DNA from: Mariannaea sp. PMI_226
Taxonomy: Eukaryota; Ascomycota; Sordariomycetes; Hypocreales; Nectriaceae
Assembly: GCA_024336345.1 (NCBI GenBank)
Contig: JANFOG010000008.1
Coordinates: 248,001-312,000 of the forward strand
Reading direction: 5' to 3'
Length of the DNA stretch: 64,000 bases
A program made the translations under genes and the position numbers. Under the pieces are notes generated by a model, which saw nothing but the letters and a program-made list of their open reading frames with translations, searched no databases and had not been told where the DNA came from. Shown here one piece after another: positions 1,011 through 13,638 of the stretch; position 1 is the first letter of the stretch; the number at the start of each line of letters is the position of its first letter.

Positions 1011-2087
1011 TCAAGACCGATTCTGATCTTTTGCCGCCAGCCTCTTGCTCCGACGGCGGTATTCAACAAACCGCCTGCAAGCGATGCATTGTCCGTCATC
1101 GTCAAAGTAGTGCTCATCCAGTTGGTTCTCGCACTCCTCGTGTGGTTCCCCATCGTCGCATGCATCGCACGACTGTTGCCGGTACGTGCAATCCCACAGA
1201 CTGGTCGTGGTATCGGACCAGAAATCAAATAGCCGGCAAAGGCACCCGGGAGTGTGCCAACCGTAAAGGATCTCGTGGATGCGCTCGGGGGGGTCATCTG
1301 GCTTGAGAAACTCATTCCGTTGAGGGGGATCCCGAGCGCACAGCACCGAGATGTCGATCGCTGGGCATTTTTCGAAACCAGATTTTTCTACTAGTAACCA
1401 GCCATATGTTTCGCCTTCCAAACAGCTCTCTTCATCGATGCCCAAATCCTCCACTAGACTCTCCATTGCCGGTGTAACATCGAGATCAAAGCGCACAAGT
1501 GTAAGACCCTTGTCCGTAATATTGTCCCAAGTGAGCCTGTCGCTAGTGGCCACGAGGATCCAGCTTCGATAACGGCCCCGAAAATCATATTCACGCCAGA
1601 ACTGCTCAGTTGGGCACCAAGTCGGTACAATGTGCGGCCACGGCTCCTTTCCCCGGATTTCGCTGACCAGTTTTTCTTGGGCGTCTTCTTCTGAAAGACC
1701 AGCGACAGCTTTCTGCCTCATCTCTCGAATGGCAGCCTTTCGGTGGGTTTTCTCTTGACGATGATGCGCAACACATTCCTCAATGGTGCTGAAACCCGTG
1801 AAAACGTCGACCCGGGGCCAGTAATTCCGAGCATTTCCCCAGCCAGCGATTGCGTCGCTCCAAAGCAGTTTCTCTCCAAGAGCTTCAGGTGAAGGACTGG
1901 GATTACCGAGACAATACAGCTGTATCCCAAGCTTGGGGATGCTGATGGCTTGATTTGGAAATCTGGTGACGACGGTGTAGGAGCGTCCTGCATGGTCAGG
2001 AAAATGGTGAGCGTGAGGACCAGGCGGGATTTTCCTTGGCGCCCTGCCTCCAAGGCTTTTCCGGGCGGTTTGTCTGGACCGGGCCAT
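1011..2087 (-). CDS. Protein with a histone H3-like N-terminal tail and a Cys-rich C-terminus (358 aa)
   Basis: Seen: one uninterrupted 358-codon exon whose first residues after Met are ARSRQTARKSLGGRAPRK. Against the canonical H3 tail ARTKQTARKSTGGKAPRK this is 14 of 18 identical, with T3S, K4R, T11L and K14R. The K9/S10 block (QTARKS) and K18 are kept. The tail starts exactly where H3 starts after Met removal. The rest is not a histone fold. Residues 282-337 hold eight cysteines, including C307-x2-C310 and C334-x2-C337, in a region rich in Asp and Glu; a basic RRRSKR stretch at 344-349 could be a nuclear signal. Inferred role: a chromatin-associated protein, or a decoy for H3K9 writers and readers such as Clr4/HP1-type factors. 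I do not recognise the central region. The length of the frame and the exact tail register make the start convincing. Confidence 0.75.
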   Translation of the reverse strand: MARSRQTARKSLGGRAPRKIPPGPHAHHFPDHAGRSYTVVTRFPNQAISIPKLGIQLYCLGNPSPSPEALGEKLLWSDAIAGWGNARNYWPRVDVFTGFSTIEECVAHHRQEKTHRKAAIREMRQKAVAGLSEEDAQEKLVSEIRGKEPWPHIVPTWCPTEQFWREYDFRGRYRSWILVATSDRLTWDNITDKGLTLVRFDLDVTPAMESLVEDLGIDEESCLEGETYGWLLVEKSGFEKCPAIDISVLCARDPPQRNEFLKPDDPPERIHEILYGWHTPGCLCRLFDFWSDTTTSLWDCTYRQQSCDACDDGEPHEECENQLDEHYFDDDGQCIACRRFVEYRRRSKRLAAKDQNRS

Positions 2088-6697: not shown

Positions 6698-9130
6698 CTA
6701 ATCGTCTTCCTCCCAAAACACTCGTTCGGGTAGCCAATCATCAGGGTACACCCGACATCTTACTTCCAGATTACTGAGCAACTTGTGCTCGTCCGGGGTC
6801 AGATTCCAACCATTCAAGTCAAAATTGGAAGCAATTCGTTCTGCTTTTACGCTCTTCGGGATAACACTTGTTCCTCTCTGTAGTGCCCACATAATTCTGT
6901 TTATACGTTAGGGCGAATTAGAGAAACGTGATGGGTGATACTGACAGGATTTGTTGCGGTGTTCTCCCTTTCCTCTCGCACAGCTCCCTCAGAGCTACAT
7001 TTTCATGAAGCTCTGGCAGGCCAGAGGCAAGCGGTGAATACGCAGTACAATGAATGTCATTCAACTCGCAAAATGCTAGTAGCTCGTTCGAAGGACAGCA
7101 GGGATGTAACTGCATTATGTCAGGTTAGATACAGTCTGGTTAATATGGCGAGTTGAGAATAGTGTGGCTTCACGTACCTCTATTTGGTTTACAGCTGGAA
7201 CAATAGTACATTGTGGATGTGATAGTAACTTTGTTAGATTGCGTATGCCAAAGTTGGACACACCAATGTTACGTATTCTCCCCGCCTGAACCTCGCGTTG
7301 CATATCCTGCCTACGCATACTATCGTTAGATTTATATGTCAAATAATTGTTAATATAGACATCTATATTATTTTCAGAAACTCACCATGTCTTTATGAAA
7401 TCCCAATCGGGCATTGCCTGGGTCGGGTCTTCTGGTTTAACTGGCGATGGCCAGTGCTGTTCAACACAAATTAGTGCTTGTCTTAGTGTAGCATTTTGCT
7501 TTCATCTCACCATGAGAAGGAGATCAATATACTCCGTTCCAAGTCTCTCTATAGACAGACGGACAGATTCAGCTACCCGATGGTGCCATGAATTGTCAAC
7601 TTTGGTTGTGATCCAAACGGTATCGCGAGCAAGACCCGAATCTCGAACTGCTTTGCCCACCTGGTCCTCGTTATTGTACCGAAATGCTGTGTCGATGTGA
7701 CGATAACCCAGTCGAAGGGCAGTCATCACAGCCTCATATGTCTGCATTGGTGCCTTCGGCTTACGAGTTCCAAAGCCTAGCCCTGGCATCTTGTCTCCTG
7801 TATTGAGTGTAAAACACAGCCGAGTAAAGTTGGTATCCGTGGTGCCATTGCCGTTCTTCGAGTGACCATTTGTTTTGCTGCATGGTTTATGACCGTTCGT
7901 GCTTGCATTTTTATCAGGGTGACCTGCATCCCCATTCAATGACGGGGATAGCTGCATGGTTTTGCTTCCGTTTTTGTACTCTGTCGTAGGAGGGACGGAT
8001 TCCAAGTTGTTGGAAAGAAAGGAAGTGCAAATAGCCTCTGCAGTTACGAGGGTGTCCTCCACCTGGGCAATGGATGTTGAAAATGACTCCTGAACTCCTT
8101 GAATGTACTCCCCAAATTGTTGGCATATGTTTTGGATAGTATCTTCTTTGCGAGACTGGAATACTGTCTGAAACGTTTGTCTGCCATGAGAGTCGTAGTG
8201 AATAATTTCATTGCAGTTCAAATGCAGAGAACCGCGATCTCCTCGTACTTGGACCGTTTCACTTTTACCAAACTCTACTTCGGAAACATAGAGATGGCCA
8301 ACCAGACCCGAAGAATCCCACCTCATCACTACGTGTGACTCACGGTCTCTCGCAGAGTGTAGGTGATCATTGGCTCGATGACCTAGTACTGTAGTAGGAC
8401 GCCCAAAGAGCCAGGTGATAACATCCAGCATGTGCACACCGAGATCATCCTAGCCATATTAATTACCGTACACAATGTCAAAAATTCCAGGTGGGCAAGC
8501 AACGAAAGGAGCAAAGGAAGGCCTTACAAATGTTCCGACGTTATCCATCATTCGCCACCCATCACTTGGAGGATCATATTTTCCAACTAACCTTGCTCTG
8601 ATAGACAGAGGACTACCAATCATAGGGAGCAGGCTCCGAAAATGAATGAACCGCGGCTGCCACCTTCTCTGGAAAGCCACAGCGACCTTGGTCGGGATGC
8701 AGCGTAGATTACTGTATTCTTCCAGAGACTCAGCAATAGGCTTTTCCTTGAGGCAAGCCACACCGGCGGCAGACAGCTGTTTGATGACTTGAAAGTGATG
8801 CCTGTTGGGTACGCAAACGATGGCGAAGCTGAGCTTGTCCTGGTGGTGTTGTAGGAGCTGCTCCAGATTCGTGTACCCTGGGATCTCGGGGAAGAGGGAA
8901 GTAAAGTCATCAATGGCCGTCGTGCTAGTATCGCAGACAGCGGAAACTTTGATAGTAGAGCTTTGGCGGAGGTGTTCAAACCAAGTGCTGTAGCCCTGTG
9001 CCCCCAAGCCAATAATAGCCACTGAGTAGCATGGTGCTTGGCTGCTCATTGTAGTCGATGTAGTCGTCTTTAATTTTGGTGTTCTACAGCTTATACAATC
9101 AAGCCATTCATGTTGTTCATACGTTAACAA
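6698..9130 (-). CDS. Gfo/Idh/MocA dehydrogenase fused to aldo-keto reductase (six exons, 702 aa)
   Basis: Exons: 9130-8528, 8449-7511, 7456-7386, 7310-7178, 7109-6946, 6896-6698. All introns are GT-AG and all phases agree. The N-terminal half is a Gfo/Idh/MocA oxidoreductase: the Rossmann motif GLGAQG (41-46), the E129-K-P motif and GVH207MLD. After a polar Asn/Gly/Lys-rich linker (about 355-413) comes an aldo-keto reductase with the full tetrad D454, Y459, K484 and H515, the last created exactly at an exon junction, plus a GVSNFG segment. Both halves should bind NAD(P)(H). No intergenic gap, stop or promoter separates them: exon 2 itself carries the end of the first domain, the linker and the start of the second. 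It lies between two sulfotransferase genes on the same strand. Substrate unknown. An inner ATG at 9049 may be the true start, since the first 27 residues are atypical. Confidence 0.8.
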
Positions 9131-10257
9131 CTCTTAGCTGTATTTTATAAGACTATGCGGGGTCCATCATGGCTCTATGCCCTCTGAGGTGCCCAGGCTC
9201 AGATGGTTGGAAATTAGGGCGTACTGCGTCAATCAGGAATCCTCGATTCGTCATATGAGCTTGCTTTGTGGATTGTCCCCGTCGGGCTGTGAAACATTTG
9301 ACAAATACAAGTCAGAAGGGTCAGATAGGCTAGCTACATATGTATCGCATTAGCTCGCATAAACCCTGTAAGGTATATATACCTATTCTCATATGATGTT
9401 ATATGCAGGTTTGCGTAAAGGACGTTCTCGTCTTGCCACGGAGAAATTCTGAAATCTGCATCCAAGACACATGCCGAGAAATGCGGTATGACTTATTCAA
9501 TCAGCAGGAGGAAATATTCCTGTACTCCAGCTGCTAATGTGCGTTAATGCAATTCATATGTAGCTAACCTTTCTGAGCCTTGCGGCCTGCAGTAGATCAC
9601 ATCCGAGCCGTTCCGATGGCCCGCAGCGACGATCCGACGCAAGAGACTTCAGCTCCGACATCCAGCCATGGCATTCCTAGCCCGTTGTCCCGGTGTCTCA
9701 GTTCAGTAGCCGCTAATTGATGAGGTGTCATACTACTACTGGATAGCCTACAGTCGGCAGTGACACCTCATGCGGCAGCGGTATATTAGTGAAACAGGTG
9801 AGCGGCTGAATATCGACGGGTAACGCCGCCGATAGAATACGAGCTGTATGGGGGGCAGGCCTCATCGGTGAATCAGCAAACTAGGCCGTGATTTATCCCC
9901 TATCTCGTATTACTAGTAATCAGATATAATCCAAAACAGCGAATCAATCTATGTCACTACTAACCTGCTATTCGTGGTTTCTCTCGTTTCTCAGCTCAAG
10001 TTGCCTTCCCAACATGACGTAGAATCTCGACCTATTCACAGAAGATCTTTTCGCACAGGGTCTTTATGAGGCATCCGACATCAGCTGCTGACATTATAGC
10101 TATCTGATACGCCACTTCTTACTAAACTAACCACAGAAAGAAATGATTAGCAGTAGAATCAGGTGGAAATGCCTGATGTGTGGAGATTTCACAGCACTTC
10201 AGCACATATGCAACCATCACAACTATCACACGCGAAGTCCATCCGATGACCCCCAAT
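9131..10257. other. Intergenic, promoter side of the fused dehydrogenase
   Basis: I see no coding frame of note. It should contain the promoter of the fused gene and the 3' region of the second sulfotransferase. Confidence 0.45.
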
Positions 10258-11067
10258 TCAGTATATCACAAACCATAAGAACAACCCACTTAAAAATATG
10301 ACCAAAACAAAAGATTTGATGTTCGCATCGGCACGAGCAATGCGGTCTTGAAACATCTGTTCATATGGCAGATCCTTATTCAACGTTGGAAATGGTGTTC
10401 TGGGAACAGGTTGCTTCAAGAACTCGCACAGAGGTTCCCATCCGTCGGTGACATCCCACTCTAGGAGCCGATCAGGCGGCACCAGGCTCCTTACCAAATG
10501 GCAATGGTCCTCCAGGACCCGTCGCGAATGTTTTTCAAAAGACCCTCTGTAAAACGTCTGCCAGTTGCCTCGAAAGAAACCTTCCTGTAGCCAGAATAAT
10601 TCTGAGCAGAACCAGCTCCGAAACCAGAACGTCCAGCTTGTTTGTAGAGGTACAAGGGTCTTCATAACGCTATTATGCCAAGCGTTTATGTCCTTGCGTA
10701 TGTTCAGAATGACTTTGGCTTCAGGATAGGCAGTGATGAGCTCTGGAGCAAATGCTGCCGCCGCGTGGTCGGTTATGGCGGCGCAGTGGCCGATTACTTG
10801 ATCGAAATCTGTGGCTGTTAGGCAATGCTGCCCCGTGCGACGGCCACACTCCTGCTTTAGCCGTAGTCTATGCCAAACTATGTCGTCTTCGGGGTGTAAG
10901 GTAGGGTCGAAGCCATGGTACGTGTGTTGATAGCCAAGCTGAAGAAGAGCAGCTTGCAGTGAAGCGGTGCCTGATCGAGAGGGACCAACGGCAAGAACTC
11001 GCAATGGCACAGTGCGAATTCGACAGGGCGGCTGGAGCGCATATACAGCTTCTTTGACGAATTCCAT
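10258..11067 (-). CDS. Fungal PAPS-type sulfotransferase (intronless, 269 aa)
   Basis: Single exon of 269 codons. The PAPS phosphate-binding motif GPSRSGTASL lies near residue 30, followed by TYHGFDP, FDQVIGHCAA, a PEAKVILNIR segment (strand, then PAPS 3'-phosphate-contacting type Arg), RSLVPPDRLLEWDVTDGWEPLCEFL and a C-terminal hydrophobic helix of about 18 residues that probably anchors the enzyme in a membrane. Family knowledge: transfer of a sulfuryl group from PAPS to an alcohol, phenol or amine acceptor; most fungal members have no assigned acceptor. It has the same architecture as the frameshifted copy at 4397-5458 but lacks its introns and is clearly diverged, so this is not a very recent tandem duplication. 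Confidence 0.8.
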   Translation of the reverse strand: MEFVKEAVYALQPPCRIRTVPLRVLAVGPSRSGTASLQAALLQLGYQHTYHGFDPTLHPEDDIVWHRLRLKQECGRRTGQHCLTATDFDQVIGHCAAITDHAAAAFAPELITAYPEAKVILNIRKDINAWHNSVMKTLVPLQTSWTFWFRSWFCSELFWLQEGFFRGNWQTFYRGSFEKHSRRVLEDHCHLVRSLVPPDRLLEWDVTDGWEPLCEFLKQPVPRTPFPTLNKDLPYEQMFQDRIARADANIKSFVLVIFLSGLFLWFVIY

Positions 11068-12286
11068 GGTTCATTCGTGGCGCATCTAGTCCGCACCGTG
11101 TATCGCCCTCTCAAGAAAGTCTTTAATGCTAGTTGATAAATACACCAATCTAAGTGGCAGTTTCCATGCAAAATTCTGGTATCTGTCTTTATATAGTACA
11201 TCCCGTTAATTCGTATAAGTAATCCTAGGATACTTATTTTATTGTTTTTTACGCAGGTCTTGGGGAGGTGTTAGTTTTTGGTCCACTTGTCGCACTTGGC
11301 CAGCCATCCTGTGAGCTGTAAGAAGAAACACAAACTAGCAAGCTGTACACATAAACTAATCGCGGCCAGATTGAGCCACGTCACACAAACACTGGATCCC
11401 GCACCGACGGAACCCGACTTACTTATCCAGGACGAGGGAGATTGAGCTTCCAAGTATCGGAGGAAGCTGCAAAGTAAGGACTAGGGGTTTAAGAGTAGTT
11501 GGAAGTTATTGTTAAACCTGTTTCCTAAGCGCCCTCAATTACTATTACATGCCACGGGTTTACTTGGTGTTGAATGATATAAATCGGCACCGTTGAAATG
11601 TATATTTACCGGACACTAGTGTAACAAAGGTTATCAACAGCTGATTCGAGACACAGTCCGCGACGTGTCTGTCTGTTGTCTCACCACGAACTCATGTCTC
11701 GCAAGAATTGACTGACGCATTATTGCGTCATTTGAAAGCAAGTCCGACCTAGAGCAGGCCTGCGTGCCCCATTCTCCATGACTTTCTGGCTGAGCATAGT
11801 CTTGCAAGGAGATGCTGGAAAGCGGAGTATCAATAGATCACATTCTGAAGATGATTATTGGTCCGATGAGATAAGGTATTTATGCATTGGAATTTTCAAC
11901 TGCAGTAATCACATTGAACGAGTGAGGCTTGGAACTAGTAGACTACGCTCGGGACGGTGTGCTAGTCATCCCGCAGCCCAACTGACTGTCCATATTAGGC
12001 CCTTACGACAATTTTGATGTAGCTGAATCATACCTACGCGTCTCTGTATCATATAACATCATGGATTTTAAGACACGGGTGTCAGAGTAGTGGCAAATGG
12101 TGGATCTATCGCCTATCACTCACAGACAGGAATATCGCCTACGGATTTGCAGAGTTTACGAAGAACCAGAATAGTCACAAACACATACTTTCCTGCATGA
12201 GTAACGTCAAGGTTTATTACGACTGTCTCAAAAAAAAGATGGACTACCACTCTGCATAATAAAACCCTATATAAATGATCGACTAT
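11068..12286. other. Intergenic, with a possible unassigned short frame
   Basis: A 60-codon minus-strand frame at 11271-11453 ends in a hydrophobic segment and could be a last-exon remnant, but I found no upstream exons. Nothing else is supported. Confidence 0.4.
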
Positions 12287-13638
12287 CTAGTCATCGGAAG
12301 GGCGTTCAGCAGAAGGTGAGATGCTATTTATGCACAAGTACATGTCAGTGGAGAATGGACGTTTGGTAACCAGGGGCCTTACCGAGCGAGGTGGCGTCTT
12401 TGACCATCCATCACGTCTGTTAATGCAGAATGACAAGTGTTGCGATTCTACTCCAGCATTAAAATCTTGATCAGTCATCGAGCCAGATGAATAACTTACA
12501 TCAAACACAAGAACTGTTCCATTCTCCCATCTCACCCTGCATTGCATGTCTTGGCCCAGCGTGATATGGTCAGATAGAAACTTCAAAAGAAAATCGCTCT
12601 CTTCTTTTTTGAATCCAACCACTTTCTTTGTGTTCGATGGATTGAAATACAGTGACTTTTTACCAGTTGCTGGATGCGTACGAACAATGGGATGGGCGGT
12701 TTCAATGGGTGCCCGACGAGTATATCCGCCAGTCGCAGCAGCTCTTGCCGCTTGGTCACGACCCGTGTGCACAGCAGACAGTCCTTTGAGCCTCTCTTGG
12801 AACGCGGGACTTAGGCGCTCATACGCCTGTTCCATGTCAACGAAGACGGTATCACCACCGGCTTTGGGAACCTCCAATGCATACAAGAAGGCCATCCCAG
12901 GAGGTTGCACCTCAAACGAGTGATCAGTGTGCCAAGCCAAAGAATTGGTATAGTTTTCAAAGAATTCTCTCGCAACGTTATTGCCTGCACGGCGAAGAAT
13001 GATGTGGACCTCAGGATGGCCCGCGGGAGAACCAGAATGCGGGTGAAGAATTAGTCGGCCGAAGTGGCGACCGAATTCCACTGCTTGTGCGATGGGAATC
13101 GACGCAAAGTCTTGGTCACGGAACACTAGATGTGTGATTTATTAGTCTTCTGATCCAGAAGCCATGTGTTACAACTCTTACCAAGGACCTTTTTCATAGC
13201 TGCAAGAAGAGCTAGCTGATCCTTCCCCTTGTCCGTTAGTTGGCTGAGCTGTACACCAGAAATCTCAGCGCCTATTCCGGGTGTAAGATCTTTGAGTCGA
13301 CTTTCAGGGCCGAGGAGATCTGGGAATGTGGCGTCTGCTCCCTTTCCACGTTCAACGTAATCGAAAGGTTCAAGCGGCGGATATCTAAAGCGTTGCTTTT
13401 AGTTCTCGTCGAGCATTTAGAGTAACTAGAGTACTGTATCACAACATTCTTCCTAGGAGGATTGAGCGTACTTGGCTTGTGGAACTTCCCAAACAGGAAG
13501 ATAATTTGGGAACAAGGCGGGGGCGTGCTCTGCCGTTCCTGTTACTTCTTCTTTGTCGGGCTCATGAGCTAAGTAGCCTCCTATAAGGAGAGTATCTTTA
13601 GCAATGGCACCAGCTGCCACACTTGCTGTCAATGACAT
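12287..13638 (-). CDS. TauD/TfdA-type Fe(II)/2-oxoglutarate dioxygenase (five exons, 365 aa)
   Basis: Exons: 13638-13472, 13384-13182, 13125-12500, 12447-12383, 12323-12287, all GT-AG, phases consistent, 365 residues. The iron-binding facial triad is complete: H189-x-D191 in WHTDHSF and distal H338 in NRNTCHSA, with the 2-oxoglutarate-binding Arg in QRRHLAR (349-354). The third intron must be removed to bring the distal His into frame. The end (RISPSAERP) also fits the family. Relatives oxidise taurine, other sulfonates, alkyl sulfates or phenoxyacetates; closeness to two sulfotransferase genes makes a sulfonate or sulfate ester attractive, but this is inference. No signal peptide, so cytosolic. 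Confidence 0.85.

What the first reader, a model, noticed from the sequence alone, without database searches (positions are those of the whole stretch)
1011..2087. Non-histone protein that begins with a near-copy of the histone H3 tail
After Met the protein reads ARSRQTARKSLGGRAPRK, 14 of 18 identical to H3 residues 1-18 and in exact register with the free N-terminus. K9/S10 and K18 are kept while K4 and K14 are changed to Arg, so acetylation or methylation at 4 and 14 is excluded but K9 chemistry remains possible. The 340 residues behind it are not a histone fold and include CxxC pairs and a basic NLS-like end. This would be a histone mimic built into a fungal protein, able to compete for H3K9 methyltransferases, HP1-type readers or K4 readers.
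Basis: partly seen in the sequence, partly recalled or inferred. Interest (0 to 1): 0.9.

Follow-up and report, generated by a model that had tools for sequence, protein, structure and literature searches.

The report
Fungal protein family wearing histone-H3 tail
An unstudied family of mould proteins that are not histones starts with nearly the same amino acids as histone H3, and evolution has guarded that start in many species, which suggests that it docks onto the machinery that normally reads H3.

Summary
Window 2087..1011 (-) is a single-exon ORF of 358 aa starting M-ARSRQTARKSLGGRAPRK, 14 of 18 identical to H3 1-18 in exact register. In 2,000,000 shuffles of its own 18 residues the best score was 11. 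It belongs to an unnamed family of filamentous ascomycetes (78 other proteins). No Pfam family reaches its cut-off; the predicted body is confident (pLDDT 89) but matches no solved fold clearly.

Many homologues are closer to H3 than this one: 13 of 73 begin exactly ARTKQTARKS and 4 of 73 match 19 of 20. Positions 1-10 evolve about as slowly as the folded body (0.86 versus 0.95), while the linker behind them is near saturation (2.53). The tail is probably ancestral and was lost repeatedly, including in most Fusarium rows and in the other two rows of this protein's clade. It is best read as a selected N-terminal H3 mimic.

The slowest sites are at the free end, so I favour a reader of the H3 N-terminus over a K9-only decoy; the partner is unproven. 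Closest known case: animal PAF15, whose H3-like N-terminus binds the UHRF1 PHD finger. Two other fungal families carry H3-tail copies.

The parts
1011..2087 (-). Whole coding sequence (358 aa plus stop 1011-1013), one exon, Met codon at 2087-2085
   Evidence: 78 homologues, most of them starting at the same Met
2031..2087 (-). Met plus the H3 1-18-like tail ARSRQTARKSLGGRAPRK (14 of 18)
2055..2084 (-). H3 positions 1-10 (ARSRQTARKS), the slowly evolving part of the tail in the family
   Evidence: Site rates, mean 0.86 against 0.95 for the body
2004..2030 (-). Linker (residues 20-28), variable in length and sequence in the family
   Evidence: Mean rate 2.53; alignment A1
1191..2003 (-). Folded body (residues 29-299), no Pfam family, with conserved D94, C105, H108, E112, K113, R116, PHIVPxW and D201
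   Evidence: model mean pLDDT 89, pTM 0.86; no clear fold match
1077..1190 (-). C-terminal Cys/His-rich stretch (C300, C307, C310, H316, C319, C334, C337), possible zinc site (inferred)
   Evidence: Read from the sequence and from the conserved columns
1029..1076 (-). Basic C-terminal helix RRFVEYRRRSKRLAAK, NLS-like (inferred)
   Evidence: Sequence; helix 335-357 in the model; missing in some members

Best explanation
The protein is an endogenous H3-tail mimic. After removal of Met it presents a free N-terminus A1-R2-[T/S]3-[K/R]4-Q5-T6-A7-R8-K9-S10 on a flexible arm in front of a folded, possibly zinc-containing body. Selection keeps this end so that a protein that normally grips the free end of histone H3 (a PHD-finger protein, or an LSD1- or WDR5-class binder) also grips this one. 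That either brings the body to chromatin complexes or displaces them from H3. Shown by computation: the match, its register, its wide and probably ancestral presence in the family, and the slow evolution of positions 1-10. Inferred: Met removal, nuclear location, docking on an H3 N-terminus reader, and what docking does.
For: 13 of 73 members begin exactly ARTKQTARKS, 32 have at least 8 of the first 10, 31 at least 12 of 18. Positions 1-10 have mean rate 0.86, against 0.95 for 287 body columns and 2.53 for the linker (p 2e-5 against the linker; no difference from the body, p 0.57). Of ten pairs picked across clades, nine share 14-17 of 18 tail residues with 0-1 of 7-8 linker residues and 34-51% of the body; the tenth shares 11 of 18. 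62 of 73 have a small second residue, which by the recalled Met-aminopeptidase rule frees residue 1. Twelve of 15 residues shared with the own H3 gene (Met included) use another codon, so it is no recent copy. The model leaves residues 1-8 under pLDDT 50. Precedent: the VRTK end of PAF15 binds the UHRF1 PHD finger as H3 does; its R and T are needed, its K hardly (PMC7060239, section 7), which would tolerate K4R. The own genome has 15 PHD and 4 SWIRM matches.
Against: The tail is lost in many members: at least 12 changes of state on the tree, and only 31 of 67 rows have 12 or more of 18. The other two rows of this protein's clade have lost most of it, and this protein itself has four changes, so it may be relaxing here. 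Positions 11-18 (mean 2.40) are not slower than the linker (p 0.25), though strict-register counting raises them. No binding partner, localisation or transcript is shown. Conservation of a basic start could have another cause.
Confidence: 0.55

Rival explanations
1. K9-centred decoy, the first reader's idea: the QTARKS core is methylated at K9 by the DIM-5/Clr4-type enzyme and bound by HP1, so the protein recruits or titrates the heterochromatin machinery.
For: QTARKS is intact in the window protein and K9 is Lys in 44 of 73 members. The genome has 29 chromodomain matches (several with stops inside), 4 chromo-shadow matches and 1 Pre-SET match.
Against: K9 (1.02), S10 (1.13) and T11 (1.67) evolve faster than A1, R2, K4, Q5 and R8 (0.61-0.77). 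T11, recalled as a key DIM-5 contact, is Leu here. A K9-only mimic would not need the exact free end.
Confidence: 0.2
2. Intramolecular docking: the body is itself an H3-tail binder and the built-in tail is its self-blocking pseudo-ligand.
For: The tail and the body have travelled together since the base of the family, and the body has no known fold or function.
Against: The AlphaFold model leaves residues 1-8 under pLDDT 50 and shows no confident placement. Members that lost the tail keep the body.
Confidence: 0.1
3. Borrowed nuclear import signal: the tail is an H3-type NLS for the Kap123/importin-4 receptor.
For: H3 1-28 is an NLS in yeast; K14R has only a minor effect on it (PMC5677370, passages). 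Some members with the best tails (P0009, P0012, P0014, P0032, P0057, P0060, P0063) also keep a Lys at position 23.
Against: Kap123 contacts K14 and K23, and residues 1-11 were disordered in that structure, yet 1-10 are the conserved part here. The window protein has Arg at 14 and no Lys between 18 and 52. Many members have a basic C-terminal end that could serve as NLS.
Confidence: 0.08
4. Passive relic: an old H3 N-terminus was joined to the gene and is drifting away without function.
For: Many lineages have lost it; the minimum is 12 changes of state (at least 12 of 18 versus fewer) on the tree.
Against: Positions 1-10 are as slow as the body while the adjacent linker is near saturation; the amino acids are kept while the codons differ from the own H3 gene at 12 of 15 shared residues. 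In the own H3 gene the first intron, as I read it, interrupts codon 25, not 18-20 (sequence).
Confidence: 0.07

Closest known systems
PAF15/PCLAF (PCNA-associated factor, PF15715), the animal H3-tail mimic bound by UHRF1
   Same: Non-histone protein with a free H3-like N-terminus in register ([AV]-R-T-K) and an APRK-like stretch; Pfam's PAF model weakly sees the tail of 5 of 56 members (best E 0.0011)
   Different: Sub-threshold matches only (best 20.2 bits, cut-off 23.4), confined to the tail; a folded body of more than 300 residues instead of a small disordered protein (recalled for PAF15); PCNA-box pattern in 1 of 79 members
Histone H3
   Same: First 18-20 residues and their register
   Different: No histone fold behind the tail
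SNAG-domain transcription factors (Snail, GFI1) that bind LSD1 (recalled)
   Same: A free N-terminal peptide that imitates the H3 tail
   Different: SNAG peptides resemble H3 only loosely, whereas members here reach 19 of 20
Viral and host histone mimics of the ARxK/ARKS type (influenza NS1, G9a; recalled)
   Same: H3-like motif in a non-histone protein
   Different: Short internal or C-terminal motifs, and the viral ones act on a host; this is a fungus's own gene with the tail at the free N-terminus

Membership tests
PAF15/PCLAF (PF15715) | Pfam PAF model above its curated cut-off (23.4 bits) | tested here: not met
   Window protein: no match up to E 1. 7 of 10 chosen members match weakly, best 20.2 bits
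PAF15/PCLAF (PF15715) | PCNA-interaction box | tested here: not met
   Pattern Q..[ILMV]..[FYH][FYW] in 1 of 79 members (P0002), not in the window protein
PAF15/PCLAF (PF15715) | H3-like free N-terminus in register | tested here: met
   by analogy only, since Met removal is inferred
PAF15/PCLAF (PF15715) | UHRF1 (PHD-SRA-RING) as partner in the same organism | tested here: inconclusive
   No SRA match in the own genome, but none of the 14 control genomes rang either
Histone H3 | Histone fold | tested here: not met
   No Pfam match; locus not among the 10 PF00125 matches of the genome
Kap123-type H3 NLS | Lys14 and Lys23, or the published two-lysine consensus | tested here: not met
   Window protein: Arg at 14, no Lys between 18 and 52 (consensus from PMC5677370 passages). 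At least 7 of 73 members do keep a Lys at 23
Any solved fold (body) | Clear structural match in the PDB | tested here: inconclusive
H3 N-terminus mimic (functional class) | H3-like residues kept by selection in register with the start | tested here: met
   Rates and pairs, for positions 1-10; lost in several lineages
H3 N-terminus mimic (functional class) | Physical binding of an H3-tail reader, writer or eraser | not testable with these tools
   Needs peptide binding

The most novel reading that the evidence does not exclude
Filamentous ascomycetes carry a repertoire of their own H3-tail mimics that share chromatin partners with real H3: this family (free N-terminus), an AAA+ ATPase family with DUF7025 (free N-terminus) and an RT-like cellular gene (internal H3 1-31). 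Together they would be a built-in decoy or recruitment layer acting on H3 readers and writers.
Probability: 0.25. Interest if true: 0.92.

Novelty: new variant of a known kind. Interest (0 to 1): 0.74.

Why it matters
Endogenous proteins that copy the free end of H3 are few as far as I recall; PAF15 is the worked example, and it acts in DNA methylation maintenance (PMC7060239). A fungal family with an unrelated body, up to 19 of 20 identical to H3 and constrained over deep splits, would show that the H3 N-terminus has been borrowed more than once, and would offer a genetically tractable system for finding what binds it. A practical point: antibodies and peptide readouts for H3 could in principle cross-react with such proteins (inference).

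Tried and rejected

Literature: ten searches of the held open library listed no paper that I recognised as describing a fungal N-terminal H3 mimic of this kind; several listings were cut to the first 8-20 papers. I saw listings and starts of abstracts only, except PMC7060239 (passages, and section 7 in full), PMC5677370, PMC5718144 and PMC3520738 (passages). Most subscription papers are not held.

Led nowhere: folding Talaromyces P0057 without an alignment gave mean pLDDT 33.8 and was not used. The first tree was cut by a pattern that left some rows uncut; it was redone from an alignment anchor, with the same picture.

Rows dropped: of 79 family proteins, 6 without a readable start were left out of the tail counts (73 remain). 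Six more short rows were left out of the tree (67 remain); none of these six has 12 of 18. Alignment A1 and the fold used 56 of 79. P0004 and P0009 were counted from an inner Met. Strict-register counting penalises members with indels (P0006, P0011, P0017, P0043 and others), which still show KSTGGKAPRK-like pieces.

Full report
What is there. The minus strand from 2087 to 1011 encodes 358 residues in one exon, with the first in-frame Met at 2087 and a stop upstream. The mature start ARSRQTARKSLGGRAPRK matches H3 1-18 at 14 of 18 positions in exact register. Shuffling its own 18 residues 2,000,000 times never gave more than 11. A search of the own genome with the protein gave one match, itself. 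That genome is Mariannaea sp. PMI_226, judged by two named proteins that are 100% identical to its frames (P0080, P0200).

The family. A protein search found 78 relatives at E <= 0.001. Those with names come from Fusarium, Ilyonectria, Neonectria, Dactylonectria, Thelonectria, Clonostachys, Aspergillus, Talaromyces and Paecilomyces. None has a precomputed Pfam domain. The window protein has no Pfam match up to E 1. Scanning 56 members gave only weak matches, the commonest being PF15715, the histone-like domain of PAF15 (5 of 56, best E 0.0011), below its cut-off (20.2 against 23.4 bits).

The tail across the family. Of 73 members with a readable start, 13 begin exactly ARTKQTARKS, 32 have at least 8 of 10, 31 at least 12 of 18, 10 at least 16 of 18 and 4 have 19 of 20. 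Position 4 is Lys in 48 and Arg in 8. Position 14 is Arg in 28 and Lys in 10. 62 of 73 have a small second residue, which by the recalled Met-aminopeptidase rule exposes residue 1. Six others start MRTKQT, where a retained Met would stand in for Ala1 and keep R2, T3 and K4 in register (inference).

Age and constraint. On a tree built from the body only (67 rows, quick method, some forks open), H3-like tails occur in the short outgroup clade, in Aspergillus, in Talaromyces/Paecilomyces and in Hypocreales, so the tail is probably ancestral. The minimum number of changes of state is 12, so losses are common: the other two rows of the window protein's clade have 7 and 2 of 18, and the six fujikuroi-type Fusarium rows 0-2 of 18. 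Of ten pairs that I picked across clades, nine share 14-17 of 18 tail residues and 0-1 of 7-8 linker residues at 34-51% body identity; the tenth shares 11 of 18 and 2 of 4. Site rates on the same tree are 0.86 for positions 1-10, 2.40 for 11-18, 2.53 for the linker and 0.95 for the body (287 columns). Positions 1-10 differ from the linker (p 2e-5) and not from the body (p 0.57); positions 11-18 do not differ from the linker (p 0.25), though strict-register counting raises their rates because of indels. The slowest tail sites are Q5, K4, A1, R2 and R8. The window tail differs in codon from the own H3 gene at 12 of 15 shared residues, so the likeness is old and held at the protein level.

How it most likely works. 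The register and the slow free end point to a partner that reads the H3 N-terminus itself. The worked precedent is PAF15: its VRTK end binds the UHRF1 PHD finger in the H3 manner (Kd 2.2 uM against 1.5 uM for H3), mutating its R or T abolishes binding, and mutating its K has little effect (PMC7060239, section 7). That would tolerate K4R in the window protein. The genome has general machinery: 15 PHD matches, 4 SWIRM, 29 chromodomain, several with stops inside, 4 chromo-shadow and 1 Pre-SET. No SRA match was found, but that search rang in no control genome. The Kap123 import rival fits poorly here, because Kap123 contacts K14 and K23 and not residues 1-11 (PMC5677370, passages), although at least 7 members keep a Lys at 23. 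The K9-only rival fits less well than a free-end reader. None of these is excluded.

Not alone. The same genome encodes an AAA+ ATPase with DUF7025 that starts MARTKQTARK. Among 120 listed relatives (of 164 found), 14 have at least 8 of the first 10 H3 residues; many others begin MARTSQ, MARTAQ or MARGKR, and some models are truncated. It also encodes an RT-like protein (no Pfam match; named so by sources of its relatives) with an internal stretch 26 of 31 identical to H3 1-31. Among 120 listed relatives (of 609 found), 25 have 24-29 of 31, 41 have 13-22 and 54 have 6-12. These suggest that borrowing the H3 tail is recurrent in these fungi; a shared function is not shown.

Verdict. The partner and the outcome are not shown. 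I file it as a new variant of a known kind (endogenous N-terminal H3 mimic, as in PAF15), in an unrelated and uncharacterised family.

Noticed in passing
L036:3351-5783 (+) (G000:C23, start 1022350): An AAA+ ATPase with DUF7025 starts MARTKQTARKIRR, exact H3 1-9 at the free N-terminus; 14 of 120 listed relatives have at least 8 of the first 10 H3 residues.
   Followed up: partly
L037:2290-5226 (+) (G000:C25, H3-like stretch from 398043): An RT-like protein of 979 aa holds an internal H3 1-31-like stretch (26 of 31); 25 of 120 listed relatives have 24-29 of 31, 41 have 13-22, 54 have 6-12. It may be the cellular RVT gene (recalled; no test made).
   Followed up: partly
L037, residues 411-464 of the ORF: The deposited model P0200 (925 aa) leaves out exactly these 54 residues, the H3-like stretch, as if a 162-base intron with GT and AG ends; splicing is not shown.
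   Followed up: no
Family members of Fusarium (P0035, P0041, P0047, P0048 and others): The tail is replaced by a start of the type TSPERRLSTGGAAPYK, which keeps an STGG core and gains an RRxS motif that resembles a kinase site.
   Followed up: no
window 7502-13138 and L038:1987-2997: Neighbouring frames look like oxidoreductase, sulfotransferase-like, TauD-like and aromatic-prenyltransferase-like genes, as in secondary metabolism; judged by eye, no family search made.
   Followed up: no
G000:C22:231494 (L031): A 55-residue ORF starting MARTKQTARRGHPKAV, either chance or the first exon of a further H3-like start.
   Followed up: no
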